DNA from: an uncultured Flavobacteriales bacterium
Lineage (GTDB): Bacteria; Bacteroidota; Bacteroidia; Flavobacteriales_G; Salibacteraceae
Assembly (NCBI GenBank): GCA_913045895.1
Contig: CAJWSQ010000003.1
Span: 1-43,305, forward strand
Length of the DNA stretch: 43,305 bases
Direction of reading: 5' to 3'
Below the pieces are notes generated by a model. The model did no database searches. It was not told the DNA's origin and saw nothing but the letters and a program-made list of their open reading frames with translations. The first letter of the stretch is position 1. Each line of letters begins with the position of its first letter. A program made the position numbers and the translations under genes. Of the stretch, positions 2,149-40,122 are shown one piece after another.

Positions 2149-2906
2149 ATATCTCTAGCCACCTCTGCTTTCTGAACAGCTTTTTTAAGTCTTGGAGATT
2201 CTACTCTTTTCTTGAATACGTAGCGGTTCAAAGGCTTAAAGAAATTGGGTAAATCCTCACGGAATACATCGCAGAAAAGGACTACACGTGTTTCATTGGT
2301 TTTATTCCAAACTTGGTGGTTAAATGTATCGTCAAATAAAACGTCTTCTCCTTCTTTCCAACTGTACTTTTGTCCACCATTTAAGATATAACACTCACCA
2401 TCTTCAGGTATTACCAAACCTAAATGGTAACGCCAAACACCTTTGTAAAACCCACGATGTGGAGGTATATGTTTGTTTGGTCCTAGGATGGAGAACATAG
2501 CGGTTGTAATTCCCGGTATTTGCTTTAAAAGCGCTGCCGTTTTTGGTGCTTGCTCACAGTTAGCTTCCATCCAATTATCATACGCCTGAAAAATGAAAGT
2601 TCGCCAGGGAACATCATCATTTGCCGAAATCATGGTTTGAATTTTATCCACTTCATGAAATTTCGGGATGTTATTTTGATGCTTTAAAATTTCAGCCAAT
2701 TCCTCTTGAATAACCTTCCAGTTATCTTTCAATAATTTATGCTCAGGAAAATATTTATCGACATCAACAAAAGGTTTGTTTTTGAAAAACATCGACATAA
2801 AGAAAGAGAAAGGAATAGCTAATAAACTGGGCTCAACGATATAGATTAGGAGAATTAATGCTGCGATGGAAATGACCACCCACATTAATATTTGCAATAC
2901 AATCAT
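2145..2906 (-). CDS. Aspartyl/asparaginyl beta-hydroxylase family protein (LpxO-like)
   Basis: 253 aa. An N-terminal membrane helix (residues 3-27, VLQILMWVVISIAALILLIYIV) is followed by a double-stranded beta-helix oxygenase domain. Visible motifs are GPNKHIPPHRG (first His cluster near residue 146), WRYHLGLVIPE, and FDDTFNHQVWN (second His near 195), which give the Fe(II) ligands of 2-oxoglutarate-dependent Asp/Asn hydroxylases. Membrane-anchored bacterial members include LpxO, which hydroxylates lipid A acyl chains; the substrate here could be lipid A or another membrane molecule and cannot be decided from sequence. It is the third gene of a possible minus-strand operon after the aminotransferase and the ClC channel (83 nt gap). 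Confidence 0.8.
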   Translation of the reverse strand: MIVLQILMWVVISIAALILLIYIVEPSLLAIPFSFFMSMFFKNKPFVDVDKYFPEHKLLKDNWKVIQEELAEILKHQNNIPKFHEVDKIQTMISANDDVPWRTFIFQAYDNWMEANCEQAPKTAALLKQIPGITTAMFSILGPNKHIPPHRGFYKGVWRYHLGLVIPEDGECYILNGGQKYSWKEGEDVLFDDTFNHQVWNKTNETRVVLFCDVFREDLPNFFKPLNRYVFKKRVESPRLKKAVQKAEVARDI

Positions 2907-2989
2907 GACAGGATTTTTTCGGTACTCAAAGTTAAAAGAAATACGATTTTAGAAACGTTAAACAGCCGTGAAGGTTTTGTTTAAAAACA

Positions 2990-4786
2990 CTATTCTTCGT
3001 AAAAATCTTTGAGCCTTTTTCGGTATGCACTGAATAACTTAGACTTAGATACAAAGCCTATATACTTTCCTTCAGAATCAATTACAGGTAAGTTCCACGC
3101 ACCACAATGATCAAACTTGCGCATTACTTCCTCCATGCTATTTTCTCTGTATATAAACTCAGGAGCAGAAGTCATTAGTTCATGTACTTTAATCTTATCA
3201 TGTTTTTCATGATCAAACATCACTTTACGTGCGTCATTTAAAGTAACAACCCCTAAGAATAAGTCATCATCATCAATTACGGGAAATAGGTTACGATCAG
3301 ATTTAGCAATAGCCTTTACTAGATCACCCAAGGTTTGATAGGGCTTTACACGAATGAAATTTGTTTCAACTTCATTCTTCAAATTCATTAAGGTTAAAAC
3401 AGCTCGGTCTTTGTGATGTGTTAGTAGCTCTCCCCTCTTAGCCAATTGGCGCGTATAAATGGAGTATGGTGTTGAATATTTAACCGTGATAAAAGCGATT
3501 GAACTGGTTATCATTAGCGGTAAAAACAAATCATAACCACCGGTTAATTCGGCTATCAAGAAGATACCTGTAAGCGGAGCTTGTAATACTCCAGCCATTA
3601 AACCACCCATGGCAACTAACGTAAAATTGCTTGATGATAGATATGTACCTGTAACAACATTTACCAACTTACTGAACGTATAACCCGTTCCAGCTCCTAG
3701 GAATAGTGCAGGTGCAAAAATACCTCCAACACCTCCACTTTTAAGTGTTAAAACAGTAGCTAAAGTTTTGAATACGATAATCGCGAACAACACCAACATC
3801 ACTACCCAAAATTCATCCAAGTTAGGGATGAAATGAATGTTGTCTAGCATTAAGTCTTCATCTCCCTGAATCAATTGATTAACAGTAGAGTAACCCTCAC
3901 CAAAAAGAGGAGGGAAAATGTAAATTAGTGCCCCTACTATAGATCCACCAATCAGCGCCTTTACATAGCCATTTTTGATGCGCTCCATCCAAGTGCCAAT
4001 GTAGAAATATGAACGAGTGAAGTAAACAGAAACCAACCCTGAAACCATACCCAGCAAGACATAAAACACTGTTTTGGACGCATCAAAATCTTCCATCAAT
4101 TCAAAATGGAATAACACTTCTTCACCTAAAAATAAACGAGATGTAAGATTGGCTGCAATGGTGCTTAAAAGCAGTGGGATTAATGACACTGCTGATAAAT
4201 CAATCATTATTACTTCTAACGAGAAAATGATTGCAGCAATAGGTGCTTTGAACAATGAAGCAATAGCTCCAGACGAAGCACAAGCCATGAGTAACACCTT
4301 TGTTTTATAGTTCAATTTGAGCAGCTGACCCAAATTAGATCCAATACTTGCCGTTGTTCCAACCGATGGACCTTCAAGTCCAACCGATCCACCAAAACCA
4401 ACAGTTAAAACTGAGGTTAATGCAGAAGCATACATCCCCTTTTTACTCATATTGGCATTTCCCTTAGAAATTGCGTACAACACATTGGGAATACCGTGAC
4501 CAATATTGGCTTTGATCAACGTTTTGGTAACAAAAACAGCTAAGAAGATTCCTATTAATGGAGTAAAGAAAAGTGTTAGATCAGATACATCTTCTAAATC
4601 AGTGCTTATCAGCAACAACTCAACCCAATGCGCTAAGTTTTTGAGGATTACAGCCGCCAATCCAGACAACAATCCAATGACAACACTCAAGATGTAAATG
4701 AATTGCTTGTGTTTCAGGTGCTTAACTCGCCATATCAGAAATACTTTGAGCCACTGATCGATCTTATGCTTACCATCTTCGAGCAT
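2990..4786 (-). CDS. ClC-family chloride channel/transporter with two CBS domains
   Basis: 598 aa. The N-terminal about 430 residues form the ClC membrane fold. GFGGSVGLEGPSVG carries the gating glutamate (E138), and GGVGGIFAPALFLGAG is the GxFxP selectivity motif. After the membrane part, about residues 455-590 contain two CBS domains (FPVIDDDDLFLGVVTLND and NLPVIDSEGKYIGFVSKS), which bind nucleotides and modulate gating in this family. The protein moves chloride, often in exchange for protons, across the inner membrane. The start is 12 nt after the stop of the aminotransferase gene, so the two are probably co-transcribed. Length and motifs are complete. Channel versus antiporter cannot be told with confidence. 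Confidence 0.92.
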   Translation of the reverse strand: MLEDGKHKIDQWLKVFLIWRVKHLKHKQFIYILSVVIGLLSGLAAVILKNLAHWVELLLISTDLEDVSDLTLFFTPLIGIFLAVFVTKTLIKANIGHGIPNVLYAISKGNANMSKKGMYASALTSVLTVGFGGSVGLEGPSVGTTASIGSNLGQLLKLNYKTKVLLMACASSGAIASLFKAPIAAIIFSLEVIMIDLSAVSLIPLLLSTIAANLTSRLFLGEEVLFHFELMEDFDASKTVFYVLLGMVSGLVSVYFTRSYFYIGTWMERIKNGYVKALIGGSIVGALIYIFPPLFGEGYSTVNQLIQGDEDLMLDNIHFIPNLDEFWVVMLVLFAIIVFKTLATVLTLKSGGVGGIFAPALFLGAGTGYTFSKLVNVVTGTYLSSSNFTLVAMGGLMAGVLQAPLTGIFLIAELTGGYDLFLPLMITSSIAFITVKYSTPYSIYTRQLAKRGELLTHHKDRAVLTLMNLKNEVETNFIRVKPYQTLGDLVKAIAKSDRNLFPVIDDDDLFLGVVTLNDARKVMFDHEKHDKIKVHELMTSAPEFIYRENSMEEVMRKFDHCGAWNLPVIDSEGKYIGFVSKSKLFSAYRKRLKDFYEE

Positions 4787-4798
4787 GAGGCTGCGAAG

Positions 4799-5953
4799 TT
4801 ATAGCTTAGCCAGAATTTGAGCAGCTTTTTCTAGAGTTTCATTCTCTTTAGCGAAGCAAAAACGTAAAATTTGATCTTGTGTAGGATTATGATAGAAAAC
4901 AGATACAGGAATTGAAGCCACTTTATGCTTTTTGGTGAGCATTTCGGCAAATTCAGTATCTTTTTCATCACTGATTTCACTGTAGTCTAACAGCTGAAAA
5001 TAAGTACCTGAAGTTGGAATCACTTTGAATTTAGAACCTTCCAATTTACTCAAGAAAAAATCACGTTTCTCTTGATACATATTGGAAATGTGCATGTAAT
5101 TCTCAGAGTTCTTCATAAATTCAGCTAAAGCCAATTGAACTGACGTATTCACTGTAAATACGTTGTATTGGTGCACTTTACGAAATTCGCGCATCAAGTT
5201 TTCGGGAGCTAAAATGTAACCTACTTTCCAGCCTGTTGCGTGAAATGTTTTTCCAAAAGAACCAACTACAAAACTGCGTTCAGCTAAAGCTGGATATCTA
5301 GAAACACTTTCGTGTTTTTGTTCATCAAAAATGATGTGTTCGTAAACCTCATCACTTAAAATAATGATATCGTTTCCGCTAGTGATACGCTCCAACTGCT
5401 CCATGTCGTCTTCAGACAAAATAGTTCCTGTTGGATTATGAGGCGTATTGATTAGTATCATTCGCGTTCTGCGATTCACCAACTTCTTAACCTCATCCCA
5501 ATCAATTTGGAACTCAGGGCTACGCAGTGGCACATTTACCACTTTACCTCCTGCTAACTCAATAGCAGGTGTGTAACAATCGTAAGCGGGAGTAAATATG
5601 ATGACTTCGTCTTCTTCTCGAATTACAGCTTGAATAGCTGTGTAGATGGCTTGAGTAGCGCCAGCAGTAACTGTAACTTCAGTATCTGGGTTATACTCAA
5701 CACCATGAAGCAACTGAGCTTTATGAGCAATTTGGTTGCGCAAAGGAGCCACACCTGCCATTGGTGCATATTGGTTATTTCCGGCCATCATTTCGCGATG
5801 AACCAAGTTGATTAGTTCTTCAGAAACCGGAAAATCAGGAAAACCTTGAGATAAATTAATCGCATCAAATTCCTGAGCCATCTTACTCATTACTGAGAAA
5901 ATGCTAGATCCTACTTTGGGCAGCTTTGAACCGATTGAGTTTGGATATTCCAC
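4799..5953 (-). CDS. PLP-dependent aminotransferase, methionine aminotransferase type (YbdL/MtnE-like)
   Basis: A class I/II aminotransferase. Motifs: INLSQGFPDFP near the N-terminus, TAGATQAIYTA, NTPHNPTG, ILSDEVYEHI and the PLP-lysine site GSFGKTFHATGWKVGY. QGFPDF and the NTPHNPTG spacing are typical of the kynurenine/methionine aminotransferase group (E. coli YbdL), which transaminates methionine or 2-oxo-4-methylthiobutanoate. The open frame extends to 6040, but a perfect -7 box (TACTTTTG, minus strand 5998-5991) lies inside that extension. I therefore choose the GTG at 5953, giving 384 aa; YbdL has 386 and begins with a similar SQLPKVG stretch (here SKLPKVG). It is first in a likely operon with the ClC gene. 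Confidence 0.85.
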   Translation of the reverse strand: MEYPNSIGSKLPKVGSSIFSVMSKMAQEFDAINLSQGFPDFPVSEELINLVHREMMAGNNQYAPMAGVAPLRNQIAHKAQLLHGVEYNPDTEVTVTAGATQAIYTAIQAVIREEDEVIIFTPAYDCYTPAIELAGGKVVNVPLRSPEFQIDWDEVKKLVNRRTRMILINTPHNPTGTILSEDDMEQLERITSGNDIIILSDEVYEHIIFDEQKHESVSRYPALAERSFVVGSFGKTFHATGWKVGYILAPENLMREFRKVHQYNVFTVNTSVQLALAEFMKNSENYMHISNMYQEKRDFFLSKLEGSKFKVIPTSGTYFQLLDYSEISDEKDTEFAEMLTKKHKVASIPVSVFYHNPTQDQILRFCFAKENETLEKAAQILAKL

Positions 5954-17032: not shown

Positions 17033-18432
17033 AAAAGTTTGTAGTAATAGCTTCTATACTTCTTCTTGCCGGCTGTAAAATGGGTAAGAACTATAAAGGA
17101 ACGGAAGTACAAGTTCCTACTGATTTCCGCAATGGTGATTCGACTTTTGTGGTAGAATCAAATACACTCAATATCGATAGCTTAAAAGTAGATTCAAGCG
17201 GATTAGACTGGTATGGAATATTTCAAGATCCTGTGTTAGATTCGTTGATTAAACAAGGATTAGAACACAATCAAAATCTTGAAGTTGCTGCACAAAACAT
17301 ATTGATAGCCCAATACAATTTAGGCATCCAGCGAGCTGAATTACTTCCAAAAATTGGAGCTCAAGCAGGAGCCGGAAGAGGTAATTTTCAAGGTGTACTA
17401 TTAACCGATGAGATCAGCACTTTTTATGGTTTAGGAACCTTAAATTGGGAACTCGACTTTTGGGGTAAATACAGACGATTAAACGAATCTGCCAGAGCAC
17501 AACTTTTAGCAACAACATCGGGATATCGAGCCACTCAGATCTCATTAGTTTCAAATATTGCAACCACTTATTTCAGCTTGCTGGAACAGAAAGAGCGATT
17601 GAGAATTTCTGAAAATACGTTAGCGCTTCGCGATAGTATGTTGTACATCATTGAAGCGCGTTTTGATAAAGGAATTATTGCGGAAATTGATTTGTATCAG
17701 GCTCAAATACAACAAGCAATTGCGGCTAGCAATGTTCCTATCTCGCAAAGAGCCGTTGCGCAACTTGAACATCAACTGCACACGTTAACAGGTACAAATC
17801 CAAATGGCATTGATGTTCAAACTACTATTTTGAAATACGATACAGCTTTTGAAATTCCAGTAGGATTACCAAGTAATTTATTGGCCCGCAGACCCGACAT
17901 CTTAGCAGCAGAGCAGCAACTTATTGCACAAAACGCTATGATTGGTGCAGCACAAGCCAACCGTTTACCGAGCATTAGTTTAACAGGTTTACTAGGAGTT
18001 GCCAGCAACGAACTTAGTGAACTCACAAGTGGTGATTTAGCCTGGAATTTATCGGGATCATTACTGAGTCCGATATTCTACTGGGGGCAAAACAAACGCA
18101 GAGTTGATGTTGAAAGAGCTAAAACCGAACAAGCTGTGAAAAGCTATGAAGCAACTGTAATTGGTGCTTTTCAAGAAGTGGAAGATATTTTAGTGGAAAT
18201 CAAAACACTGAAGGTTGAATTAGAAGCTCGAAACAATCACGTAAAAGCAGCGCTTGGAGCTCAAAATTTGTCTCAAAGAAGATATGATGATGGCGTAACC
18301 AGTTATTTGGAGTTCTTAGAGTCTCAACGCCAGGCATTCGAAGCCCAATTGGCTTATGTTACCGCCAAACAGAGTTTACTCTCTGCTTATGCCAAACTCT
18401 ACAAAGCATTAGGCGGTGGGTGGAATTTGTAA
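17029..18432 (+). CDS. Outer-membrane efflux factor, NodT/TolC family lipoprotein
   Basis: 467 aa. A lipoprotein signal with lipobox LLAGC is visible at residues 12-16 (KKFVVIASILLLAGCKMG). Two OEP repeats follow: GLEHNQNLEVAAQNILIAQY through LGTLNWELDFWGKYR, and LARRPDILAAEQQLIAQNAM through FYWGQNKRRVDVERAK. NWELDFWGKYRR and LLARRPD are signatures of the NodT branch. It forms the trimeric channel through the outer membrane for the pump encoded just upstream (4-nt overlap). No clear terminator follows directly. Confidence 0.94.
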   Translation: MKKFVVIASILLLAGCKMGKNYKGTEVQVPTDFRNGDSTFVVESNTLNIDSLKVDSSGLDWYGIFQDPVLDSLIKQGLEHNQNLEVAAQNILIAQYNLGIQRAELLPKIGAQAGAGRGNFQGVLLTDEISTFYGLGTLNWELDFWGKYRRLNESARAQLLATTSGYRATQISLVSNIATTYFSLLEQKERLRISENTLALRDSMLYIIEARFDKGIIAEIDLYQAQIQQAIAASNVPISQRAVAQLEHQLHTLTGTNPNGIDVQTTILKYDTAFEIPVGLPSNLLARRPDILAAEQQLIAQNAMIGAAQANRLPSISLTGLLGVASNELSELTSGDLAWNLSGSLLSPIFYWGQNKRRVDVERAKTEQAVKSYEATVIGAFQEVEDILVEIKTLKVELEARNNHVKAALGAQNLSQRRYDDGVTSYLEFLESQRQAFEAQLAYVTAKQSLLSAYAKLYKALGGGWNL

Positions 18433-18467
18433 TTAACCTCGCAGGATCTTATTTATAAAAACGTTCA

Positions 18468-18495
18468 TTGAAATAACCTTGGTATAGGTACATTG
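18468..18495 (+). promoter_or_regulatory. Possible promoter of the + strand ncRNA candidate
   Basis: TTG at 18468-18470, an 18-nt spacer, then TACATTG at 18489-18495, close to the Bacteroidota TTTG/TAnnTTTG pair. The stretch TTGGTATAGGTACATTG closely resembles the 3' half of the CRISPR repeat (TTGTATTGTACATTG). Confidence 0.35.
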
Positions 18496-18499
18496 TGCA

Positions 18500-18670
18500 T
18501 ATAAAGTACAACAGGGTCTAAGGATACTGTCCCTGTTATTTCAAATCATATACCATAGCAAACTTGTTTATTGACTGTGAATAAAAGGTGTTTGGCCCGG
18601 GTAATAACTGCTCAAGGCATAGCAAAGCGGTGAATACCCCTTCATGGGCGGGTCAAACACCTCTTTTTTT
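18500..18670 (+). ncRNA. Candidate structured small RNA (6S-like size), + strand
   Basis: No open frame of note. Three hairpins can be drawn. The first is AACAGGG (18510-18516) with CCCTGTT (18531-18537). The second is a short TTTATT/AATAAA stem. The third is long: AGGTGTTTGGCCC (18586-18598) with GGGTCAAACACCT (18650-18662), enclosing further stems (GGGTA/TACCC and ACTGC/GCGGT), directly followed by seven Ts. A promoter-like TTG-N18-TACATTG precedes it. Length about 170 nt and a long imperfect hairpin with internal loops suit a 6S-type RNA, but I cannot recall the Flavobacteria 6S consensus well enough to assign it. Confidence 0.5.
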
Positions 18671-18675
18671 GAATA

Positions 18676-18797
18676 AAAAAAGGCTGTCACATCTCACAGC
18701 CCAAGAGGTTGATCCTTGCACGTATACTCGGACCTATAGTTGACACATCTCTCAACTAAAAAAGAGGTTGAGCTTAGCACGTGTGCGCAGCTCGGAA
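18676..18797 (-). ncRNA. Candidate small RNA with two tandem structured units, minus strand
   Basis: Two similar units lie in tandem. Each has a hairpin with loop CACATCTC (read on +): stems GGCTGT/ACAGCC at 18682-18701 and AGTTGA/TCAACT at 18738-18757. Each is followed by AAGAGGTTGA (18703-18712, 18762-18771), GCACGT (18718, 18777) and CTCGGA (18727, 18791). Loops are identical while the stems differ and keep pairing, which points to conserved RNA structure. On the minus strand a perfect -7 box TATTTTTG (18808-18801) lies just before the first unit, and the last hairpin is followed by seven Ts, a good terminator. No known family recognised. Confidence 0.55.
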
Positions 18798-18800
18798 GTA

Positions 18801-18808
18801 CAAAAATA
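18801..18808 (-). promoter_or_regulatory. -7 promoter box of the tandem-unit RNA
   Basis: TATTTTTG on the minus strand, an exact TAnnTTTG. The predicted start falls at about 18795, at the first base of the upstream unit (TCCGAG). Confidence 0.45.
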
Positions 18809-18831
18809 TTCATTTCAAATAAGGAAACACT

Positions 18832-18930
18832 TAAATTTGATATTGGTCAGCGGCTAAGGTCAACGACCCACCTCTTAGATATAGGTTAATATCTAAAACT
18901 AGACAGGTATTCTAAGCCTGTCTGGTTTTT
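18832..18930 (+). ncRNA. Weak candidate short RNA between the tandem RNA and the CRISPR array
   Basis: TAAATTTG at 18832-18839 is an exact TAnnTTTG box. Downstream lie the inverted repeat TTAGATAT/ATATCTAA (18875-18896) and a terminator-like palindrome (18896-18930). No coding frame fits. It could be an independent RNA of about 85 nt, a CRISPR-side leader, or only flanking debris. Confidence 0.25.
18896..18930 (+). repeat. GACAGG-type palindrome, terminator-like, left flank of the CRISPR-cas locus
   Basis: AAAACTAGACAGG and CCTGTCTGGTTTT pair across a 9-nt loop with one mismatch, followed by TTTTT-like sequence. It shares the core AGACAGG...CCTGTCT with the palindrome at 21617-21649, just after cas9. 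It could terminate transcription rightward before the array. Confidence 0.65.
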
Positions 18931-18988
18931 AATTGACTCATTACGAAATGCAGAGCTAAGTTAGGATGCTTATTAACCTCACTAATAA

Positions 18989-19216
18989 ATTGTATTGTAC
19001 ATTGGTCAAACACAACACAGGGACATTAGTACCTTATGTCTCAACTGTTGTGAATTGCTTTCAACCCCGAAGGGCTCATGAGTTCATCTGGAATTATACA
19101 ACCCACGAATAAATTGTATTGTACATTGGTCAAACACAACAGAAGGTTTGATGGGAAGTGTAAGTCTTGTGTTATGAATTGCTTTCAGATTGTATTGTAC
19201 ATTGGTCAAACACAAC
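18989..19216 (+). CRISPR. Degenerate type II-C CRISPR array, two 30-nt spacers, split repeats
   Basis: The only complete repeat is 19171-19216 (46 nt; starts GTTATGAATTGCTTTCAG, ends TACATTGGTCAAACACAAC). Repeat 1 keeps only the 28-nt 3' half (18989-19016). Repeat 2 is split: its 5' half GTTGTGAATTGCTTTCA is at 19047-19063 and its 3' half at 19113-19140, with 49 nt between. Spacers are 19017-19046 and 19141-19170, each exactly 30 nt, as in II-C systems. Transcription is rightward, because the tracrRNA anti-repeat complements the repeat 5' half, which follows each spacer in that direction. Both spacers are still flanked by a 3' half before and a 5' half after. Spacer targets are unknown. Confidence 0.85.
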
Positions 19217-19236
19217 ATACCGTGTTTGACCTTTTT
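19204..19236 (+). terminator. Intrinsic terminator formed by the last CRISPR repeat
   Basis: GGTCAAACAC (19204-19213, the 3' end of the last repeat) pairs perfectly with GTGTTTGACC (19222-19231) over an 8-nt loop and is followed by TTTTT. It would end array transcription before cas2, which runs the other way. Confidence 0.75.
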
Positions 19237-19281
19237 CATTTTCAGGCAGTTACGCTAAATATTAGAATAAAAAAATGAAAG

Positions 19282-19675
<394 letters not shown>

Positions 19676-19682
19676 GATTTCA

Positions 19683-20588
19683 TTAAATAATCGGATATGC
19701 AATCTTGCGTTTCTCCCCTTCAAAACACTGCATCAAACTTGCTGTAGTGCGTTGCATGCCCACCATCAACGGGCTTTTACTTTCTTCAATGACTACATCA
19801 ATGGTTGGAATAATCAGCAATTCTCTTTTCAATTCGGGTGTCAAATCATCTAAGTCCACATCTTGATATTCTTCTATGATATCCAGTACGATCAGATCAA
19901 CATAAGGTCTGTAAGGTTCCATCACATCATCAGCCAGGCAAAATGCATTGTATTTGTTACGGTGATGAATTCCTAAAGCAGGCAACATACCACTGGCTAC
20001 AATACTTCGGGCAACCACTGCTCGCAAAATAGCATACCCGTAATTCAACAGATTATTGGGTGGCTCACCATACCGAACTCTTCTGAAACCGCTTTCAGGC
20101 CCCAATAACTTAGCCCAATAATTGGCCGCAGCTCTTCCTTCGTAATTGTCAGGATCTCCGCTGCGTACTTTCGAAGACCAATACAACATGTTTTCAACAT
20201 CAATTCCCAATCGCTCTAAAACACGTGCTTGATTATCTATTTTACACTTTACCGTTTGTTGCCATAGATTTTTACGAAGAGGTTCGGATGCATCTAGCTG
20301 ATACCTCAGCTTTTCAGTATAAGTATGGTTGGCTGTCATGGGCATAAACAAACCCGATGGCATGTGGCGCGTATCGCAATTCAAGATAGCTGCATTGTTA
20401 TCGAGTAAGGCTGTTAGCAATGCTTGTGTAATGGTTACGCGTGGATGATCTAAGATAACCATGCCCACATCTTCAATGGGCACTGTTTTGCTCGGTTGAG
20501 CTAGCTCTTCGGGATATTCAACTTTGAGTTGTTGTCTTTCTTTTTTCAGGTAGGCTGGGTTTCCGAAATAGAGTGTTTTTTTGATCAT
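19683..20588 (-). CDS. cas1: CRISPR-associated integrase Cas1 (type II-C)
   Basis: 301 aa from the ATG at 20588 (MIKKTLYFGNPAYLKKER); the open frame runs further upstream to 20651, but the Cas1 fold starts here. Catalytic metal ligands are present: E150 in NYEGRAAANYW, H208 in LGIHHRNKYNAF, and E224 in LADDVMEPYRP (with D220/D221). It is the integrase of the Cas1-Cas2 complex. No csn2 or cas4 is present, which places the locus in subtype II-C. The gene is intact, so the small decayed array is not explained by loss of the integrase. A RAYT gene separates it from cas9. Confidence 0.96.
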   Translation of the reverse strand: MIKKTLYFGNPAYLKKERQQLKVEYPEELAQPSKTVPIEDVGMVILDHPRVTITQALLTALLDNNAAILNCDTRHMPSGLFMPMTANHTYTEKLRYQLDASEPLRKNLWQQTVKCKIDNQARVLERLGIDVENMLYWSSKVRSGDPDNYEGRAAANYWAKLLGPESGFRRVRYGEPPNNLLNYGYAILRAVVARSIVASGMLPALGIHHRNKYNAFCLADDVMEPYRPYVDLIVLDIIEEYQDVDLDDLTPELKRELLIIPTIDVVIEESKSPLMVGMQRTTASLMQCFEGEKRKIAYPII

Positions 20589-20765: not shown

Positions 20766-21527
20766 TTATTCAATCCCCGTAATTTGAGGTGGGTTTCGAT
20801 GAACAAATTGAAAGTTTGAAGTGCCATCAAAAAGCTCCAACACTTCATCTCGTTGTATAAAAGTGGGGTTATCTGTAATTAAAGTGCTGTATGAACTGTG
20901 CGCCCAGTCTTGTGGGTTTGAAACTAAACTTGCTTCCACCGGATTGTGATGGATGTAGTGGATGAGTTTGATTAGGTATTTGGAGTCTGTAACAGCCTTT
21001 CTTTTGAAGTTCTTCATGAAAAGGCTTCCTTTTCGGTTGTTCACTTTATTAAAACTCTGTGTGTAAGAACTAAAGAGTTTTGAAAACTGCTTAGATATTT
21101 CTTTTGAGAAGTTTTGCTCTTCTAGATTTTCCAAAGTTTGAAACTTTGGAAAATCTCTATTTTGCTTATTGAAGGCTTTAGAATAAGCATTAAAAAAATT
21201 GCTGAATTGTTTAGATAATAGACCTGACAGGTTTGGATTTATTTTCAAAATCTGGAATTTTGATTTTGCTTCTAGCTCTTCCAAAGTTTGGAACTTTGGA
21301 AGAGCTTTTAATAATTCCTTTTCACTTTTGATCTTCACCAAAAAATGAAAATGATTCGGCATAATACAATAGCAATAGGTTTGAGCTATTGGTGAAATAT
21401 AAAGCTGATACTTTTCTAAAAAGAAGCGGTAATTCTCTGCATCCAAAAAAAGCCTCTCGTTCCCATTAGCTCGATTGTATATGTGATACATTCTATCTGG
21501 CTCAAGTTGTGCTTGTTTATTGTGCAT
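20766..21527 (-). CDS. REP-associated tyrosine transposase (RAYT, Y1/HUH family)
   Basis: 253 aa. HUH motif YCIMPNHFHFLVKI (H59, H61) and the catalytic-Tyr region LIKLIHYIHHNPVEASLV (Y191) are intact; RMYHIYNRANGNERLF is the usual RAYT N-terminus. Such single-strand transposases act on palindromic REP hairpins. The centre is unusual. Two 33-nt palindromes are translated in frame (PKFQTLEELE about residues 77-86, PKFQTLENLE about 127-136), and the segment SKQFSNFFNAYSKAFNK (105-121) recurs as SKQFSKLFSSYTQSFNK (145-161), so the core is internally duplicated and the protein longer than usual. It lies between cas9 and cas1 in the same direction, probably an insertion in the cas operon. Catalytic residues suggest it may be active. 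Confidence 0.9.
   Translation of the reverse strand: MHNKQAQLEPDRMYHIYNRANGNERLFLDAENYRFFLEKYQLYISPIAQTYCYCIMPNHFHFLVKIKSEKELLKALPKFQTLEELEAKSKFQILKINPNLSGLLSKQFSNFFNAYSKAFNKQNRDFPKFQTLENLEEQNFSKEISKQFSKLFSSYTQSFNKVNNRKGSLFMKNFKRKAVTDSKYLIKLIHYIHHNPVEASLVSNPQDWAHSSYSTLITDNPTFIQRDEVLELFDGTSNFQFVHRNPPQITGIE
21124..21156. repeat. 33-nt palindrome copy 3, inside the transposase gene
   Basis: Perfect palindrome with arms AGATTT/AAATCT, translated on the minus strand as DFPKFQTLENL. Confidence 0.9.
21222..21264. repeat. Two further small palindromes inside the transposase gene
   Basis: ACCTGACAGGT (21222-21232) and TCAAAATCTGGAATTTTGA (21246-21264, a 7-bp stem). The second reads KFQILK, resembling the KFQTLE peptide of the 33-nt copies, and may be a decayed relative. 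Confidence 0.45.
21274..21306. repeat. 33-nt palindrome copy 4, inside the transposase gene
   Basis: Arms AGCTCT/AGAGCT and the common core with one central change (GTTTGGAAC). Translated as LPKFQTLEELE. Confidence 0.85.
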
Positions 21528-21583: not shown

Positions 21584-21616
21584 TTTTGATTGTATTTTAC
21601 TTAACCCGAAGAGATA

Positions 21617-21649
21617 AAACCAGACAGGTTTCAGAAACCTGTCTGGTTT
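21617..21649 (-). repeat. GACAGG-type palindrome directly after cas9
   Basis: AAACCAGACAGGTTT and AAACCTGTCTGGTTT pair perfectly around CAG. It begins 2 nt after the cas9 stop and is followed on the minus strand by TTTTAT, so it may terminate cas9 transcription. It is the partner of the palindrome at 18896-18930. Confidence 0.8.
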
Positions 21650-21651
21650 AA

Positions 21652-24600
21652 TTACGCTCTAGAAATGTTCCCTAGTCGATCTACTTTTAATTTGATGCAA
21701 CAATCTTTTATCATCTGGTCATCCATACTTCTCTCCATCTTATTTAATGAAGAGAATTCCTCTTTATTAACAATAGAAATCGCGACATCATTTCTAATAA
21801 AGAAAGATTGTGCCTTTGAAAAGCTTACAACTTTGTAAATTCTATTAACTTTTTCGCTACTCAGATTTCTAAAATCGATGTTAGAAATATCTTCTACTTC
21901 ATCTTTAGTCGGTACATACACAATGTCATTTGGTGATAAATGAAATAATAATCTATTTCCTTTTTCATCCTTATCAGGCACACTACTAAGCCCTTGTTTC
22001 TGCCTTTCAATTACAATATTCAATGGTATGGTTTCGTATATCCTTTTTTTAGTCTTGTTATCAAAATAAATAGCAAAAAACAAGTTAGTACCCTTAGCAG
22101 CTTCGACATACTTGGTCTTTTTATTCCCCTCATAGCCTACGGGATACTTAGTTCCAACCTCAAAAATACGAACCTTTAATATTGGCTTATGCGGTTTTCC
22201 ATCGTTAAAAAAATGAATACTTCTATTCATGTCTTCTATTCCCTCTGGAGAAAAAGCCAAGTCTGGTTTTCCACCTTTACTGAGTAGGTAATTTTTTAAA
22301 ATCTTTTGTATCCCAGTATCTGTTATAGAATCAATAACTTTTTGATTAAAAGAGGTGTCTAAATTCTTGCGTGTAGCTGTCAATATCTTCCCCTTTGGAA
22401 CTTTTATTCTAGGTAGTTCAACAAAACCCGAAACTGTTTCTTTATGCATTGGCTTTCTAATAGCCCAATTCACACCTTTTTGCTCAACTTTAACTTTTTT
22501 ACCATTTTCTATTTTCTCATAATAATTTGTGGCTTTGTTTATTACCCTAAGGTTCTGCTTAAAGCTAACAACAATTCCTTCTAGTTCATTTTTGACATCT
22601 ACTGTAAAGCCAGACCATGGTTTATTAAAAATCCATTTGTAATTACCATCTTTATCTGGCTTTGTTTTGAAACACAAGCTGTTTTTTAATTGAGTCCTAA
22701 GTTCTATTTGCTTTTTCTTTCTTGCCTCACTTTTTAAATCTTCAACTTTTGCAGAGGTGTTATTCAAGTAGTTCACATGACTCCTAGTTGCACATGCTAT
22801 AACCAATGCATCCATTGCATGATGGCGATGATCAATACGCTTCTTTTGAAATCCTTTAGAAAGTTCTAATGGCACCGTAGGTAAATACTTTTGATACTTA
22901 TCGTTCCAAGAAGTAAAATCATTGCTCTCTGTCAGCTCATTCATTCGCTGAAACCTAGGTAAGATTAAATCATTCCAAACACCATTTATACCCCAATCCT
23001 GTTTTAACTTACTGGTAATTTTACCATTAATAGATATAATGTTATTGGAGTTTACACCATCGTCATTTTTATCAGACCTTACAATATTTGACAAGAGATT
23101 TGTAACGAATTTGCTTATATATCGTGTATCGTTCAATTGGCGCTCAATCATTTTATCAGGAATATCTTCCAACAGCAGCTTACTTCTCTTTGATCTATTT
23201 TTATGGAAATGGTTATTGACAAATTCGGTATATACTTCTTCATTTAAAATCTCAACCACTCCAAAAACAGTTGAAACCTTTTGACCGTGATGATTTTTTA
23301 TAAACTCTAAACCTAACTGCCTATCCTTTAAGCTATTTACTTCAGACTCACAAATCACCTTATTACTTATACTATCATCAAAATATCTACTTTGAGGAAT
23401 AACGTGTTCAATTTCGTATGCAGAAGTAAAAAGCTTATTTAATGGAATAGGCCTACCTGTATATGGCGACTTGTATTTTTGTTCTAACCAAAGTTTGTAA
23501 CGTTGAATTTCAGATTTTGAAGGCTCAGCTTTATGACTGATTCTTTCTATCTCATCAGGAACATCAATTCCTGAATTAAGTACTCCTTCTTCATATATTT
23601 TTAAAGCTTCTTGCTGCATTGGAGAGTAAGGACGTACATTTTCTACTGATTTATCATTTAACAACTCTGATAATATTGACTTGATACGTAAATTGGTATT
23701 CTCATTTTCAGCAATCGTATTTGATATTCGCTTACGTTTGTCTGATGGGTTTTTTAAATCGCGCCCAAGCTCGATATGGATCTCATCAAAGAAATCTTTT
23801 TCTCCTTTTCCAAACTGATTCCAAATATCTTTTACAACCCTCAATGTTTCTGTAACAACCTGTTCTACAATAGGATTACGCAATGAATGCTGTTTAAATT
23901 CACGTAAATAATCATCTAGATCAGCAACCGAACTCCATTTTCCAGCATCACTAGCCTCAGAGTGACGATCGTATACAATGTATTGAGCCAACCATAACTG
24001 TAGCCCTTGGAAATGTACATGCTCAGTTAAATTTATTGCCTTTTCACGGACTCTATTTTGAATCTCCTCATCAAATTCACCTGAAATTAATTTATCAATA
24101 CGAGATTTAATTTTAGAATCAATATTATCCCATTCCCAATATTTGCCCGTTCTCATCAGTGGCAAAAGCTTCTTAATTGCTTTTTCAGAATACCTACCAT
24201 ATTCACTCACATAAGGTTTATGATTTTTAAAACTCTCTTTAAATGAATTTATGTCAATGCTATTTCTATCTGCAAAGGTCTTTAAAGCCTTTTCAAATTC
24301 GTTTTTATCTGTTACGGAATAAATAATATGCCACAGTTGCTGCTCAATTTTTCTTGTAAAAAAATCAACTGGTACATTTTCTACCTTTTCTAATCTCCTG
24401 CCAATTTCATAGCCCGTTTCATTCATGGGATATTTTTTAGACTTTTCATCTTCTTTATCCTTTGAATCATCAAATACATAGTTCCAACGATATTTAGCAA
24501 TTTCTTTTGCTAACTCCGTTTTTAAAGCTTTTGGTTTCGCATTTGGGAATTTTGCATTTACTAAAGGTTCAAGGAAATAATTCAAAATGTCTATATGATT

Positions 24601-26043
24601 AACTTCTTTTTTGGACATCAGAAAACCGAACAACTTTTCTTGATCTTCAGTGCTTTTAATGAATTTTGATGTTAAATCGGCATCATCTTTTTTAGAATAA
24701 ATTTTTAGGTTATACATCCATTGCCATACCCTAAATTCTTGGTAGTAAGGATTAGATTTTGGAATACCCTTAAGAAATTGAGTTTGCTCTAGTCCGTCTT
24801 TAATCTTGTATGTTTTATACTCCAAAGAGCAATTTCCAATTGATGTCTTTTGACTTTTCAAGGGGCGTTGGTAAAAAATAATGTCATTTAAAAACAAGTG
24901 AACAAAATCATTCTTGCTTTTTAACTGAAGCCGGTGCCCTTCATTACTTCTGTACAATTCTCTTATGCAGCCATTGTATAAATCGGTTGTAAATAATTCT
25001 GGCTGTAATTCAATTTGTTTTTTCAGAATAGCTTTTAATTCTTTCTTATAAAACTTCCTTTCAATAGTGCGAACTAACTTACCTCTTATTTTCTGAGACG
25101 GATTTTGTAATAAAGCTTCGTAAATATACGCTCCCACTGTTTTATCTGAATTTATAATTTCTTGTTCCGTTTTCTTTTTAAGTAAAGTCCAATCATCTTC
25201 CTTAGGAGCTCGAAAACTTCTTTTCGGCTCACCCTCTTTATTGGTCTTTATAGATCCATCATCATTAACATCAGTAGTTACAATGAAGTCTTTGACTTTT
25301 CCCTTCCAATCAGATAAATCAGTTTTGCTTGAACGTCTATATACCCATCCATTTTCAAGAACTAATGAATACCAAGTTTCTCCCTTTTTATTGAGCTCTT
25401 CATCTGATTGGATGTCAACAATCTTAAGAGAGTGAAATTCTACAAGTTTATTTGGGTTCTCTTCTTCTTCTTCCCCTCGCAACTGATAATAGCCTCGTTT
25501 CTGATTAAAATTGAGAATTATCCATGCTAATTCTTCTTTTTTAATTTTTTGAGTTATGGCTTTCTTACGTAAATAATAAATTGTCCAATCATACGGAATC
25601 TTCGAATCATGGCCATTTGCAACAAAAGCTTCAACCATTTCATCAAACGACTCTTGAAAAATAAATTCAAAATTGCCCTTCTCATTTTTATTCCATGCCA
25701 GCTTAGGTTCTAGATTTTCTCTGAATTGCCCTAATCTTTTTTCAAAATCTATTTGCAGAGCATAATGTTTTGGAAGAAATCCAAGAACGTTTAGAACTCT
25801 ATGTAATCTTTCCCTTCGAAGTAAGTGTCTTTCACGTAACCTTCTAACTCCACGATAACTCGTTCTTTCAGCTGTTTGAGAAATTGTATTCCCTTTTCCG
25901 AAATCACCGATTAAATCTTGGCTCATTGGAATTATTCGACTTCCGATCCCTAGTATTTTACCTTGCTTTTTCTTAAAATCTTGTTCAATCAAAGCCCATC
26001 CAATGGAGTTAGTTCCCAAGTCCAATCCTAAAATTCTTTTCAT
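21652..26043 (-). CDS. cas9: CRISPR-associated endonuclease Cas9 (type II-C)
   Basis: 1463 aa, full length for the long II-C Cas9 of Bacteroidota. In order: RuvC-I RILGLDLGTNSIGWAL (D8), arginine-rich bridge helix RGVRRLRERHLLRRERLHR (residues 64-82), recognition lobe, RuvC-II DEIHIELGRDL (E758), HNH with YEIEHVIPQSRYFDDSISNK (H880), RuvC-III IDHRHHAMDALV (H1074/H1075, D1078), then a C-terminal PAM-interacting region. All nuclease residues are present, so it should cut both target strands under crRNA:tracrRNA guidance. The tracrRNA is divergent, just upstream. RAYT, cas1 and cas2 follow downstream in the same direction. No frameshift or stop is seen. The PAM cannot be read from sequence. Confidence 0.97.
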   Translation of the reverse strand: MKRILGLDLGTNSIGWALIEQDFKKKQGKILGIGSRIIPMSQDLIGDFGKGNTISQTAERTSYRGVRRLRERHLLRRERLHRVLNVLGFLPKHYALQIDFEKRLGQFRENLEPKLAWNKNEKGNFEFIFQESFDEMVEAFVANGHDSKIPYDWTIYYLRKKAITQKIKKEELAWIILNFNQKRGYYQLRGEEEEENPNKLVEFHSLKIVDIQSDEELNKKGETWYSLVLENGWVYRRSSKTDLSDWKGKVKDFIVTTDVNDDGSIKTNKEGEPKRSFRAPKEDDWTLLKKKTEQEIINSDKTVGAYIYEALLQNPSQKIRGKLVRTIERKFYKKELKAILKKQIELQPELFTTDLYNGCIRELYRSNEGHRLQLKSKNDFVHLFLNDIIFYQRPLKSQKTSIGNCSLEYKTYKIKDGLEQTQFLKGIPKSNPYYQEFRVWQWMYNLKIYSKKDDADLTSKFIKSTEDQEKLFGFLMSKKEVNHIDILNYFLEPLVNAKFPNAKPKALKTELAKEIAKYRWNYVFDDSKDKEDEKSKKYPMNETGYEIGRRLEKVENVPVDFFTRKIEQQLWHIIYSVTDKNEFEKALKTFADRNSIDINSFKESFKNHKPYVSEYGRYSEKAIKKLLPLMRTGKYWEWDNIDSKIKSRIDKLISGEFDEEIQNRVREKAINLTEHVHFQGLQLWLAQYIVYDRHSEASDAGKWSSVADLDDYLREFKQHSLRNPIVEQVVTETLRVVKDIWNQFGKGEKDFFDEIHIELGRDLKNPSDKRKRISNTIAENENTNLRIKSILSELLNDKSVENVRPYSPMQQEALKIYEEGVLNSGIDVPDEIERISHKAEPSKSEIQRYKLWLEQKYKSPYTGRPIPLNKLFTSAYEIEHVIPQSRYFDDSISNKVICESEVNSLKDRQLGLEFIKNHHGQKVSTVFGVVEILNEEVYTEFVNNHFHKNRSKRSKLLLEDIPDKMIERQLNDTRYISKFVTNLLSNIVRSDKNDDGVNSNNIISINGKITSKLKQDWGINGVWNDLILPRFQRMNELTESNDFTSWNDKYQKYLPTVPLELSKGFQKKRIDHRHHAMDALVIACATRSHVNYLNNTSAKVEDLKSEARKKKQIELRTQLKNSLCFKTKPDKDGNYKWIFNKPWSGFTVDVKNELEGIVVSFKQNLRVINKATNYYEKIENGKKVKVEQKGVNWAIRKPMHKETVSGFVELPRIKVPKGKILTATRKNLDTSFNQKVIDSITDTGIQKILKNYLLSKGGKPDLAFSPEGIEDMNRSIHFFNDGKPHKPILKVRIFEVGTKYPVGYEGNKKTKYVEAAKGTNLFFAIYFDNKTKKRIYETIPLNIVIERQKQGLSSVPDKDEKGNRLLFHLSPNDIVYVPTKDEVEDISNIDFRNLSSEKVNRIYKVVSFSKAQSFFIRNDVAISIVNKEEFSSLNKMERSMDDQMIKDCCIKLKVDRLGNISRA

Positions 26044-26074: not shown

Positions 26075-26155
26075 ACAATTTGAAAGCAATTCACAATAAG
26101 GATTATTCCGTTGTGAAAACATTTAGTGCCTCGGCTATCTCCGGGGCTTTTTCTT
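26075..26155 (+). ncRNA. tracrRNA
   Basis: Positions 26075-26096 contain TTTGAAAGCAATTCACAA, complementary to the 5' half of the CRISPR repeat (TTGTGAATTGCTTTCA plus flank), i.e. the anti-repeat. It is followed by a nexus-like hairpin: CACAA (26092-26096) can pair with TTGTG (26111-26115), with AATAA/TTATT inside. A terminator hairpin comes last: GCCTCGG (26128-26134) with CCGGGGC (26141-26147), then TTTTTCTTTT. About 80 nt, divergent from cas9. This order (anti-repeat, nexus, GC-rich terminator) is normal for II-C tracrRNA. It pairs with pre-crRNA so that RNase III can process it and loads Cas9. Confidence 0.9.
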
Positions 26156-38106: not shown

Positions 38107-40122
38107 CTATTTATAACTTCTTTGTTTTAATTCAATGTCTTTGAACTCTAGGTTCTCTTTGTGAAGAACAGCATCAGCTGGCTCGCCTTTGTATTCCCAA
38201 GCAGCAACAAATGCAAAATCTGTATCATTACGCTTAGCTTCACCTTTTTGCTCACCATCTAGTTCAACAGACTCTTCTCTAAAGTGACCACCACATGATT
38301 CTTCACGTTGTAAGGCATCTCTAGCGAATAGTTCACCCAATTCTAAGAAATCAGCTACACGTCCTGCTTTTTCAAGCTCTGGATTTAATTCGTCAGCTTT
38401 TCCTGGAACTTTAACATCTTTCCAGAACTCTTCACGAATAGCTTTAATTTCTGCCATGGCTTCATTTAAGCCTTGGGCGTTACGAGCCATACCAACCTTA
38501 TCCCACATTACTTTACCCAAGCGTTTGTGGAAATGGTCTACGGTCTTCGTACCATTATTATTGATAAAGAAGTTAATTCGATCTTTTACAGCTTTTTCAG
38601 CTTCATCAAACTCAGGCGTATTCGTTGGGATAGCTCCTGTACGAATATCGTGAGATAGATAATCACCAATAGTATATGGCAATACGAAATAACCATCAGC
38701 TAAACCTTGCATCAATGCAGAAGCACCTAAGCGGTTAGCACCGTGATCTGAGAAGTTTGCCTCACCAATTGCGTAACAACCAGGAATGGTTGTCATCAAG
38801 TTGTAATCTACCCAGATACCACCCATTGTGTAGTGTGTTGCTGGATAAATTTTCATTGGTGTTTTGTATGGGTTCTCATCCACGATTTTTTCATACATCT
38901 GGAATAAGTTACCATATTTATTTTCAACCACTTTCTCACCCATTTCAAGAATTTGCTCTTTGCTTGGATTTGAAATACCGTGGATTTGAGCTTGCTCTTT
39001 ACCGTAACGCTCAATAGCAGATTTAAAATCTAGATAAACCGCTTCGCCTGTTTCGTTAACACCGTAACCGGCATCGCAACGCTCTTTGGCAGCTCTTGAT
39101 GCCACATCACGCGGAACCAAGTTACCAAATGCAGGGTAACGTCTTTCTAGGTAATAATCTCTTTCTTCTTCAGAAAGGTCAGTTGGTTTTTTACGTCCTT
39201 CGCGAATGGCAAGAACATCATCCATGTTTTTAGGAACCCAAATACGACCATCGTTACGCAACGATTCTGACATCAAAGTCAATTTCGATTGATAATCACC
39301 TGAACGTGGAATACATGTTGGGTGAATTTGCGTGTAACAAGGATTTGCGAAGTATGCTCCTTTTTTGTGGATTTTCCATGCTGCTGAAGCATTTGAACCC
39401 ATTGCGTTTGTTGAAAGGAAGTAAACGTTTCCGTAACCACCTGAAGCAATAACTACTGCGTGTGCACTGTGTCTTTCAATTTCACCAGTAACCAAATTAC
39501 GAGCGATAATACCACGTGCTTTTCCATCAACTACAACAACGTCTAACATTTCGTGACGGTTGTACATTTTGATTTTACCACGAGCAATTTGACGGTTCAT
39601 TGCTGAGTAAGCACCCAACAACAATTGCTGACCCGTTTGTCCTTTAGCGTAGAAGGTTCTTGAAACCAATACCCCACCGAAAGAACGGTTATCTAACAAA
39701 CCACCGTAATCACGTGCGAAAGGAACACCTTGAGCAACACATTGATCGATAATGTTTGCAGATACTTCAGCCAAACGGTAAACGTTAGCCTCACGAGAGC
39801 GGTAATCACCACCTTTTACAGTATCGTAGAATAAGCGATAGGTTGAATCACCATCACCTTGATAATTTTTTGCAGCATTGATACCACCTTGAGCAGCAAT
39901 AGAGTGCGCTCTACGTGGCGAATCTTGGTAAGCAAATGCCTTAACGTTGTAGCCAAGCTCTGCTAAAGTAGCAGCAGCTGAACCACCAGCTAAACCAGTA
40001 CCTACAACAATAACATCGATTAAACGCTTGTTAGCAGGGTTTACCAGATTAATCTTGTTTTTGTGGTTTGTCCACTTTTTATCTATCGGCCCTTCTGGGA
40101 TTTTTGCATCTAATGTTGACAT
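38107..40122 (-). CDS. sdhA: Succinate dehydrogenase/fumarate reductase flavoprotein subunit
   Basis: 671 aa. FAD-binding [20 protein letters not shown], the covalent-flavin His region [15 protein letters not shown], active-site [10 protein letters not shown] and the substrate-binding [21 protein letters not shown] are clear. It oxidises succinate to fumarate (or the reverse) at the cytoplasmic face. It is longer than the E. coli SdhA (588), as usual in Bacteroidota. It lies 23 nt after sdhC and is co-transcribed. Confidence 0.96.

What the first reader, a model, noticed from the sequence alone, without database searches (positions are those of the whole stretch)
18989..19216. CRISPR array made of split repeats that keep exactly the parts each spacer needs
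Only the last repeat is whole (46 nt). Repeat 1 is a 28-nt 3' half. Repeat 2 is a 17-nt 5' half and a 28-nt 3' half held 49 nt apart. Yet each 30-nt spacer is still preceded by a 3' half and followed by the 17-nt 5' half that pairs with tracrRNA. Repeats 1 and 2 also share about 14 nt upstream of their 3' halves (AACC.CAC.AATAA), giving a 124-nt cassette period. This looks like two stand-alone crRNA units rather than random decay. If each 3' half acts as a promoter, the split would cost nothing. The alternative is ordinary degeneration or an assembly artefact.
Basis: partly seen in the sequence, partly recalled or inferred. Interest (0 to 1): 0.75.

Follow-up and report, generated by a model that had tools for sequence, protein, structure and literature searches.

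The report
Old CRISPR repeats split by inserts
The oldest repeats of this small bacterial CRISPR array carry an extra piece of about 50 letters exactly between their two working halves, and the same kind of split, at the same spot but mostly with unrelated inserts, turns up at the old end of CRISPR arrays in other bacteria, so it is a real recurring oddity and not an error or simple rot.

Summary
It lies in a type II-C locus (cas9, cas1, cas2, tracrRNA), at the leader-distal, oldest end of a two-spacer array. Repeat 2 carries a 48-49-nt insert between its tracrRNA-pairing 5' half and its 3' half; repeat 1 is probably an eroded repeat of the same kind. It is not an assembly fault: another genus of the family (G008) has a homologous insert, twice, at the same end of its array. 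Nor is it simple random decay: among 61 arrays, inserts in repeats sit at one place (position 15-19), mostly with unrelated sequences, in ten arrays, always at the trailer end. Designed stand-alone crRNA units are not supported: the split separates the probable -33 TTG from the -7 box, and no guide function was found. Best reading: short DNA entered a permissive or preferred junction of trailer-end repeats, and the long repeats then spread to neighbours by recombination or by copying during spacer acquisition. How the DNA enters is unknown. Indels in old repeats are known; I found no report of this recurring junction insertion in eight searches of one open-access library.

The parts
18989..19016 (+). 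3' half of repeat 1 (28 nt), trailer-end repeat
   Evidence: exact copy of R2/R3 3' half
18925..18988 (+). possible eroded 5' half (about 18925-18940) and eroded insert of repeat 1
   Evidence: alignment to R2 5' half plus insert; 2 of 2000 shuffles as good, but weak without the last 14 nt
19017..19046 (+). spacer 1 (30 nt)
   Evidence: lies between the 3' half of R1 and the 5' half of R2
19047..19063 (+). 5' half of repeat 2 (17 nt), pairs with the tracrRNA anti-repeat
   Evidence: duplex -23.6 kcal/mol
19064..19112 (+). insert inside repeat 2 (48-49 nt)
   Evidence: homologous insert in G008 (0 of 2000 shuffles as good by global score, 8 of 2000 by local); breakpoints
19113..19140 (+). 3' half of repeat 2 (28 nt)
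19141..19170 (+). spacer 2 (30 nt)
19171..19216 (+). repeat 3, whole (46 nt), leader-proximal
   Evidence: 5' half with one mismatch to the anti-repeat complement
19217..19240 (+). leader start; with the end of R3 it forms an inverted repeat followed by a T run (GGTCAAACAC..GTGTTTGACC TTTTT)
   Evidence: sequence; the same arrangement after the last repeat in G008
19282..19623 (-). cas2
   Evidence: TIGR01573, 73.1 bits
19683..20651 (-). cas1
   Evidence: TIGR03639 type II cas1, 285.3 bits
20766..21527 (-). REP-associated tyrosine transposase-like gene between cas1 and cas9
   Evidence: NF047646, 65.8 bits, below the cut-off of 80
21652..26043 (-). cas9, 1463 aa, catalytic D and H present
   Evidence: TIGR01865 434 bits; closest solved CbCas9, 1901.8 bits
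26082..26150 (+). tracrRNA: anti-repeat 26082-26097, nexus stem, terminator-like stem

Best explanation
This is an ordinary type II-C CRISPR-Cas9 locus whose array now has two spacers. Its trailer-end (oldest) repeats are 'long repeats': normal repeats carrying a short DNA insert exactly between the 5' half that pairs with tracrRNA and the 3' half that carries the -7 box and the spacer-joining end. Shown: the structure, its homologue in another genus, its recurrence at one repeat position with mostly unrelated inserts, the trailer-end bias, and near-absence of the inserts elsewhere in the genomes checked. Inferred: short DNA enters the junction of a trailer-end repeat, because the site is preferred or because only there both neighbouring spacers stay usable; the trailer repeat is never renewed, so the insert persists for long; the long repeat then appears in neighbouring repeats by recombination between repeats or by being copied at spacer acquisition. 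The two crRNAs may still be made, probably more weakly, because the -33 element is cut off from the -7 box. How the DNA enters is not known.
For: Homologous insert in G008, two copies 120 nt apart at the trailer end of its 29-copy array (0 of 2000 shuffles as good for the insert by global score). Same-position splits with other inserts in G005 (four copies), Natronoflexus L054, L053, L094 (two), L096 (three), L134 (two), L042 (two), L105. In 61 arrays and 1566 repeat units no insert over 8 nt was found inside either half; long 'spacers' were masked N runs (L034, L103), one 49-nt spacer (L093) or hits outside the array. 20 long repeats in 10 arrays lie at mean relative position 0.10 from the trailer end (0 of 20000 permutations as low; ranks typed by hand, R1 of the window counted). 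L042's two long repeats share a 3'-half base that its normal repeats lack, so the whole repeat was copied. L094 and L096 have normal repeats between long ones with the same insert, which acquisition copying alone does not explain. Literature: type II-C arrays run toward the leader from repeat promoters (PMC8092290, passages); type II-A Cas1-Cas2 sets the second site from an element near the leader-distal repeat end, so small extra length on the leader side is copied (PMC6895254, passages); repeat indels gather at leader-distal ends (PMC4869251, passages).
Against: The clean common breakpoint and the 2-nt overlap in several lineages look more precise than tolerance alone needs. Inserts in G008 and G005 are eroded and were recognised partly by eye. 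R1 as a long repeat rests mainly on a 14-nt piece. L042 is not a clean insertion (7 repeat bases lost) and sits at a contig edge. L124 is doubtful and was left out of the count. No expression data. Deletion from an ancestral longer repeat was not formally excluded.
Confidence: 0.68

Rival explanations
1. Two purpose-built stand-alone crRNA units: the split is selected because each unit is an independent crRNA gene with its own promoter.
For: Each spacer keeps a 3' half before it and a 5' half after it; homologous split in G008.
Against: No TTG at -33 spacing in 5 of 6 split repeats examined; spacers next to homologous inserts differ between G000 and G008; the inserts of other genomes are mostly unrelated, so no common element is conserved.
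Confidence: 0.08
2. Ordinary random decay of the oldest repeats: the terminal repeat needs only its 3' half, so its front end is lost or interrupted anywhere.
For: Terminal repeats are often degraded in front: 26 of 47 usable trailer ends have a breakpoint at position 5-17; leader-distal degeneration is known (PMC4869251).
Against: Split repeats keep a recognisable 5' half and are all cut at position 15-19; none of the trailer ends broken at positions 5-11 shows the missing front piece upstream (5 of the 8 could be tested, low power for short pieces); non-terminal long repeats exist.
Confidence: 0.17
3. Assembly artefact or chimera.
For: The window is one contig of a draft assembly of 371 contigs, 83% complete.
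Against: The same structure in independent assemblies, with homologous insert in G008 and a same-position insert in a named isolate, L054.
Confidence: 0.03
4. A CRISPR-derived regulatory RNA (scaRNA-like) whose guide represses cas9 or another host gene.
For: Split trailer unit with homologous insert in another genus and an intact tracr-pairing half.
Against: No match of the 9 or more 3'-terminal bases of S1 or S2 elsewhere in the window, cas9 upstream included; same for the 30-mers upstream of the split repeats of L053 and L054 down to 8 nt in their loci; spacers not conserved between G000 and G008.
Confidence: 0.04

Closest known systems
Degenerate or indel-bearing leader-distal repeats (CRISPRDetect, PMC4869251; passages read)
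   Same: Changes gather at the old end; the paper states that insertions can occur in repeats and be copied, and in a passage on mid-repeat insertions names a Carboxydothermus array that another program splits in two
   Different: Here inserts of about 17-105 nt recur at one repeat position across families of one class and occur in several repeats of the same array
Type II-C arrays of Flavobacterium (PMC8092290, PMC10309648; passages read)
   Same: Repeats beginning GTTGT, repeat-borne promoter, transcription toward the leader, cas9-cas1-cas2
   Different: No split repeats are described in the passages I saw; F. psychrophilum CN46 has a whole IS256 in its array
CbCas9 (PDB 8iyq; sequence match only)
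   Same: Closest solved relative of this Cas9, 1901.8 bits over nearly full length
   Different: A protein relative; nothing about its array was tested here
Type II repeat-length ruler (PMC6895254; passages read)
   Same: Predicts that extra length on the leader side of the leader-distal element is copied into new repeats
   Different: Shown there for single-nucleotide changes on that side in a type II-A system, not for about 50 nt in II-C

Membership tests
Type II-C CRISPR-Cas | cas9, cas1, cas2 and no csn2 or cas4 | tested here: met
   The four main ORFs between 18433 and 26381 were scanned: cas2, cas1, cas9 and one transposase-like gene; the only other ORF of 80 aa or more there (23039-23284 +, inside cas9) was not scanned
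Type II-C CRISPR-Cas | tracrRNA with anti-repeat | tested here: met
   26082-26097 matches the 5' half with one mismatch; fold
Type II-C CRISPR-Cas | active-site residues of Cas9 present | tested here: met
   query has D and H where the inactivated CbCas9 has A (alignment)
Type II-C CRISPR-Cas | crRNAs started inside repeats, running toward the leader | not testable with these tools
   needs RNA data; reported for relatives (PMC8092290)
REP/MITE-type mobile element (as identity of the insert) | dispersed copies in the genome | tested here: not met
   all matches lie in or beside the array in G000 (1), G008 (3), G005 (4), G220 (3), G189 (2); Natronoflexus 1 of 2
REP/MITE-type mobile element (as identity of the insert) | stable hairpin | tested here: not met
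   13 inserts folded: only L042, L105, L053 below shuffles (z -3.9, -1.8, -2.3); the other 10 at z 0.08 to 2.3
scaRNA / CRISPR-derived regulatory RNA | guide with partial match near the cas promoter (feature recalled, not from a call) | tested here: not met
   no 9-nt or longer 3'-end match outside the array in the window
Site-specific insertion element | constant target and constant end structure | tested here: inconclusive
   near-constant position and a 2-nt overlap in several lineages, not in L096, L053, L105, L042; ends of the inserts are not alike

The most novel reading that the evidence does not exclude
A dedicated, precise process inserts short DNA at the GCTTT^CAA junction of type II-C repeats, leaving a 2-nt duplication, and the resulting repeats of about 95 nt can still serve as templates for spacer acquisition, so the II-C integrase finds the far repeat end by sequence rather than by fixed length.
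Probability: 0.2. Interest if true: 0.75.

Novelty: new variant of a known kind. Interest (0 to 1): 0.5.

Why it matters
It suggests that a II-C repeat behaves as two separable modules and gives natural length mutants of the repeat. These make a direct test possible of how type II-C Cas1-Cas2 sets repeat length and whether a repeat of about 95 nt can be copied. It also means array finders may cut off the oldest spacers: the simple finder I wrote missed the window's array and began the L094 and L096 arrays at a split repeat.

Tried and rejected
Rfam found nothing in the window at gathering score, nor a credible hit at E up to 1 in 18400-19700. The insert as palindromic element: rejected by folding. 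The insert as dispersed element: rejected by genome searches. The unit as regulator of cas9: no seed match. S1 and S2 as copies of one tandem-duplicated unit: they look unrelated (by eye). Viral targets: 20-mers of both spacers, 0 exact matches each in viral contigs; inexact targets were not searched. Insert lengths as multiples of three: 7 of 11 by eye, not pursued. Eight answered paper searches in the PMC library (listings seen) gave no report of recurrent junction inserts in II-C repeats; one search was for CbCas9.

Full report
OBSERVATION. The finding is exact. From the + strand: 28-nt 3' half (18989-19016), 30-nt spacer, 17-nt 5' half (19047-19063), 49-nt insert, identical 28-nt 3' half (19113-19140), 30-nt spacer, whole 46-nt repeat (19171-19216). 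None of 100 shuffles of the window holds three such 28-mers.

SETTING. The window is one whole contig of a draft genome (G000, 371 contigs, 83% complete). Beside the array on the - strand lie cas2, cas1, a transposase-like gene and cas9. A tracrRNA starts at 26082 on the + strand with a 16-nt anti-repeat. Cas9 is full length, keeps the two catalytic residues and is closest among solved structures to CbCas9. The leader is on the cas2 side: the sequence after the last repeat is alike in G000 and G008 and forms an inverted repeat with the repeat end, followed by T's, and in Flavobacterium II-C arrays transcription runs toward the variable (leader) end (PMC8092290, passages seen). So the split repeats are the oldest ones.

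A HOMOLOGUE. In G008, of the same family but another genus, the trailer end of a 29-copy, 76-nt-period array reads GCTTTCAA-TCCC..AGGGATCATGA..AACC..GAATAAATTG, which matches R2's 5' half tail, insert and 3' half start. The motif occurs three times in G008, all there; two contigs overlap by 94 nt, so it stands twice, 120 nt apart. Insert against insert: none of 2000 shuffles scores as high in global alignment, 8 of 2000 in local. Identity over the insert was 32 of 54 aligned columns with gaps. I saw no likeness between the spacers beside the inserts. Of the 100 genomes searched with the motif (G000 among them) 97 had no match; the three with one were G000, G008 and G030, the last with two mismatches and, I take it, by chance.

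RECURRENCE. I looked for type II cas1 in 396 genomes of the class (94 with a match), fetched 60 cas2-side regions and added earlier loci. 22 were dropped because they had no array or only a short spurious hit. Among 1566 units, inserts over 8 nt within a repeat were found in L042, L053, L054, L094, L096 (two), L134 (two) and the window. By eye I added the terminal copy in L094, a further L096 copy, a further L042 copy at the contig edge, four in G005, two in G008 and one in L105. L124 is doubtful. Exact edges: left side kept to position 15 and right side from 14 (a 2-nt TT overlap) in G005, L054, L094 and L134; 18 and 17 (AA overlap) in one G008 copy and in the window if its normal repeat is taken to read CAA as in G008 (against R3, which reads CAG, the edges are 17 and 19); 16 and 17 in the inner L096 copy; 15 and 17 in L053; 19 and 20 in L105; 15 and 23 in L042; the second G008 copy has too eroded a 3' half to place its right edge. 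The inserts of G005 and L054 share a 21-22-nt stretch; other inserts look unrelated. L096 has a second, 54-nt insert placed exactly between GCTTT and the first insert; a deletion in the other copy would look the same.

WHERE. Twenty long repeats in ten arrays (the window's R1 counted) lie at mean relative position 0.10 from the trailer end; none of 20000 permutations was as low. In all ten the trailer-end repeat is among them; L042's first copy is at a contig edge. Of 59 arrays, 12 were cut by a contig edge; of the 47 others, 21 had a whole or nearly whole terminal repeat (breakpoint 0-3), 8 a breakpoint at 5-11 and 18 at 13-17. The window's terminal repeat R1 is one of the 18, but its upstream 5' half was not recognised by that test (10 of 16, p 0.34), and the same test also failed for G005, G008 and the terminal copy of L094, which I call split by eye.

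WHAT IT IS NOT. The inserts are not dispersed elements and mostly not hairpins. No regulatory seed match was found. An assembly fault cannot explain independent assemblies.

HOW IT WORKS. The split leaves the tracr-pairing 5' half intact: R2's 5' half forms a stronger duplex than R3's. It leaves the -7-like box and the spacer-joining end in the 3' half. But of 19 normal repeats tested 16 have a TTG 18-19 nt before the -7 box, inside the 5' half, while 5 of 6 split repeats have none at 15-23 nt. The published statement that II-C repeats of F. columnare carry a TTG 33 bp before each spacer fits this (PMC8092290).

ORIGIN. Copying of a long repeat during acquisition is plausible: in a type II-A system the second integration site is set from an element near the leader-distal repeat end, and 1-nt insertions on the leader side shifted that site by as much (PMC6895254). 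L042's long repeats share a linked base, as copying predicts. In L094 and L096 normal repeats stand between long ones with the same insert, which needs recombination or renewed insertion as well. The trailer repeat is never renewed, so an insert there lasts; this can explain why the insert is conserved between G000 and G008 while spacers are not. This paragraph is inference.

VERDICT. A real and recurring oddity of old II-C repeats. The kind of change (indels in leader-distal repeats) is known (PMC4869251); the single position, the length, the copies in several repeats and the spread over the class were not found in print in the searches named under Tried and rejected.

Noticed in passing
window 18586-18672 (+); G008:C26 near 71086 (L083) and G008:C15 near 38950-39004 reversed (L062): A compact RNA-like element with a branched fold, a conserved core (TCAAGG..GC..AGCG.TGAATACC) and an outer stem whose sequence differs between copies while pairing is kept (-36.1, -29.3, -24.5 kcal/mol), with a T run after it in two copies; no Rfam match at gathering score in the window. 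The same sequence as the G008 C26 copy also appears in a viral contig (L158) beside phage-like genes.
   Followed up: partly
window 20766-21527, and palindromes near 19643, 20720, 21130, 21280 and 21557: A REP-associated tyrosine transposase-like gene sits between cas1 and cas9, and palindromes with the core CCAAAGTTTGAAACTTTGG (or close to it) lie around the cas genes.
   Followed up: no
window about 18895-18930 and 21615-21649: A second palindrome (AGACAGGT..CCTGTCT) stands just upstream of the array and again next to the end of cas9; also in G008:C6 near 4782.
   Followed up: no
L090 (G005:C7) 2767-5112: Four long repeats of G005; the first three are separated by about 0.7 and 1.2 kb that hold ORFs, as if genes sat where spacers should be.
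   Followed up: partly
G008:C6:2737-3645 (L065): cas1 of G008 has two in-frame stops in the match, so its spacer acquisition may be dead.
   Followed up: no
window 18703-18723 and 18762-18782: A 21-nt direct repeat (AAGAGGTTGATCCTTGCACGT) with a related copy near the G008 array in the other orientation.
   Followed up: no
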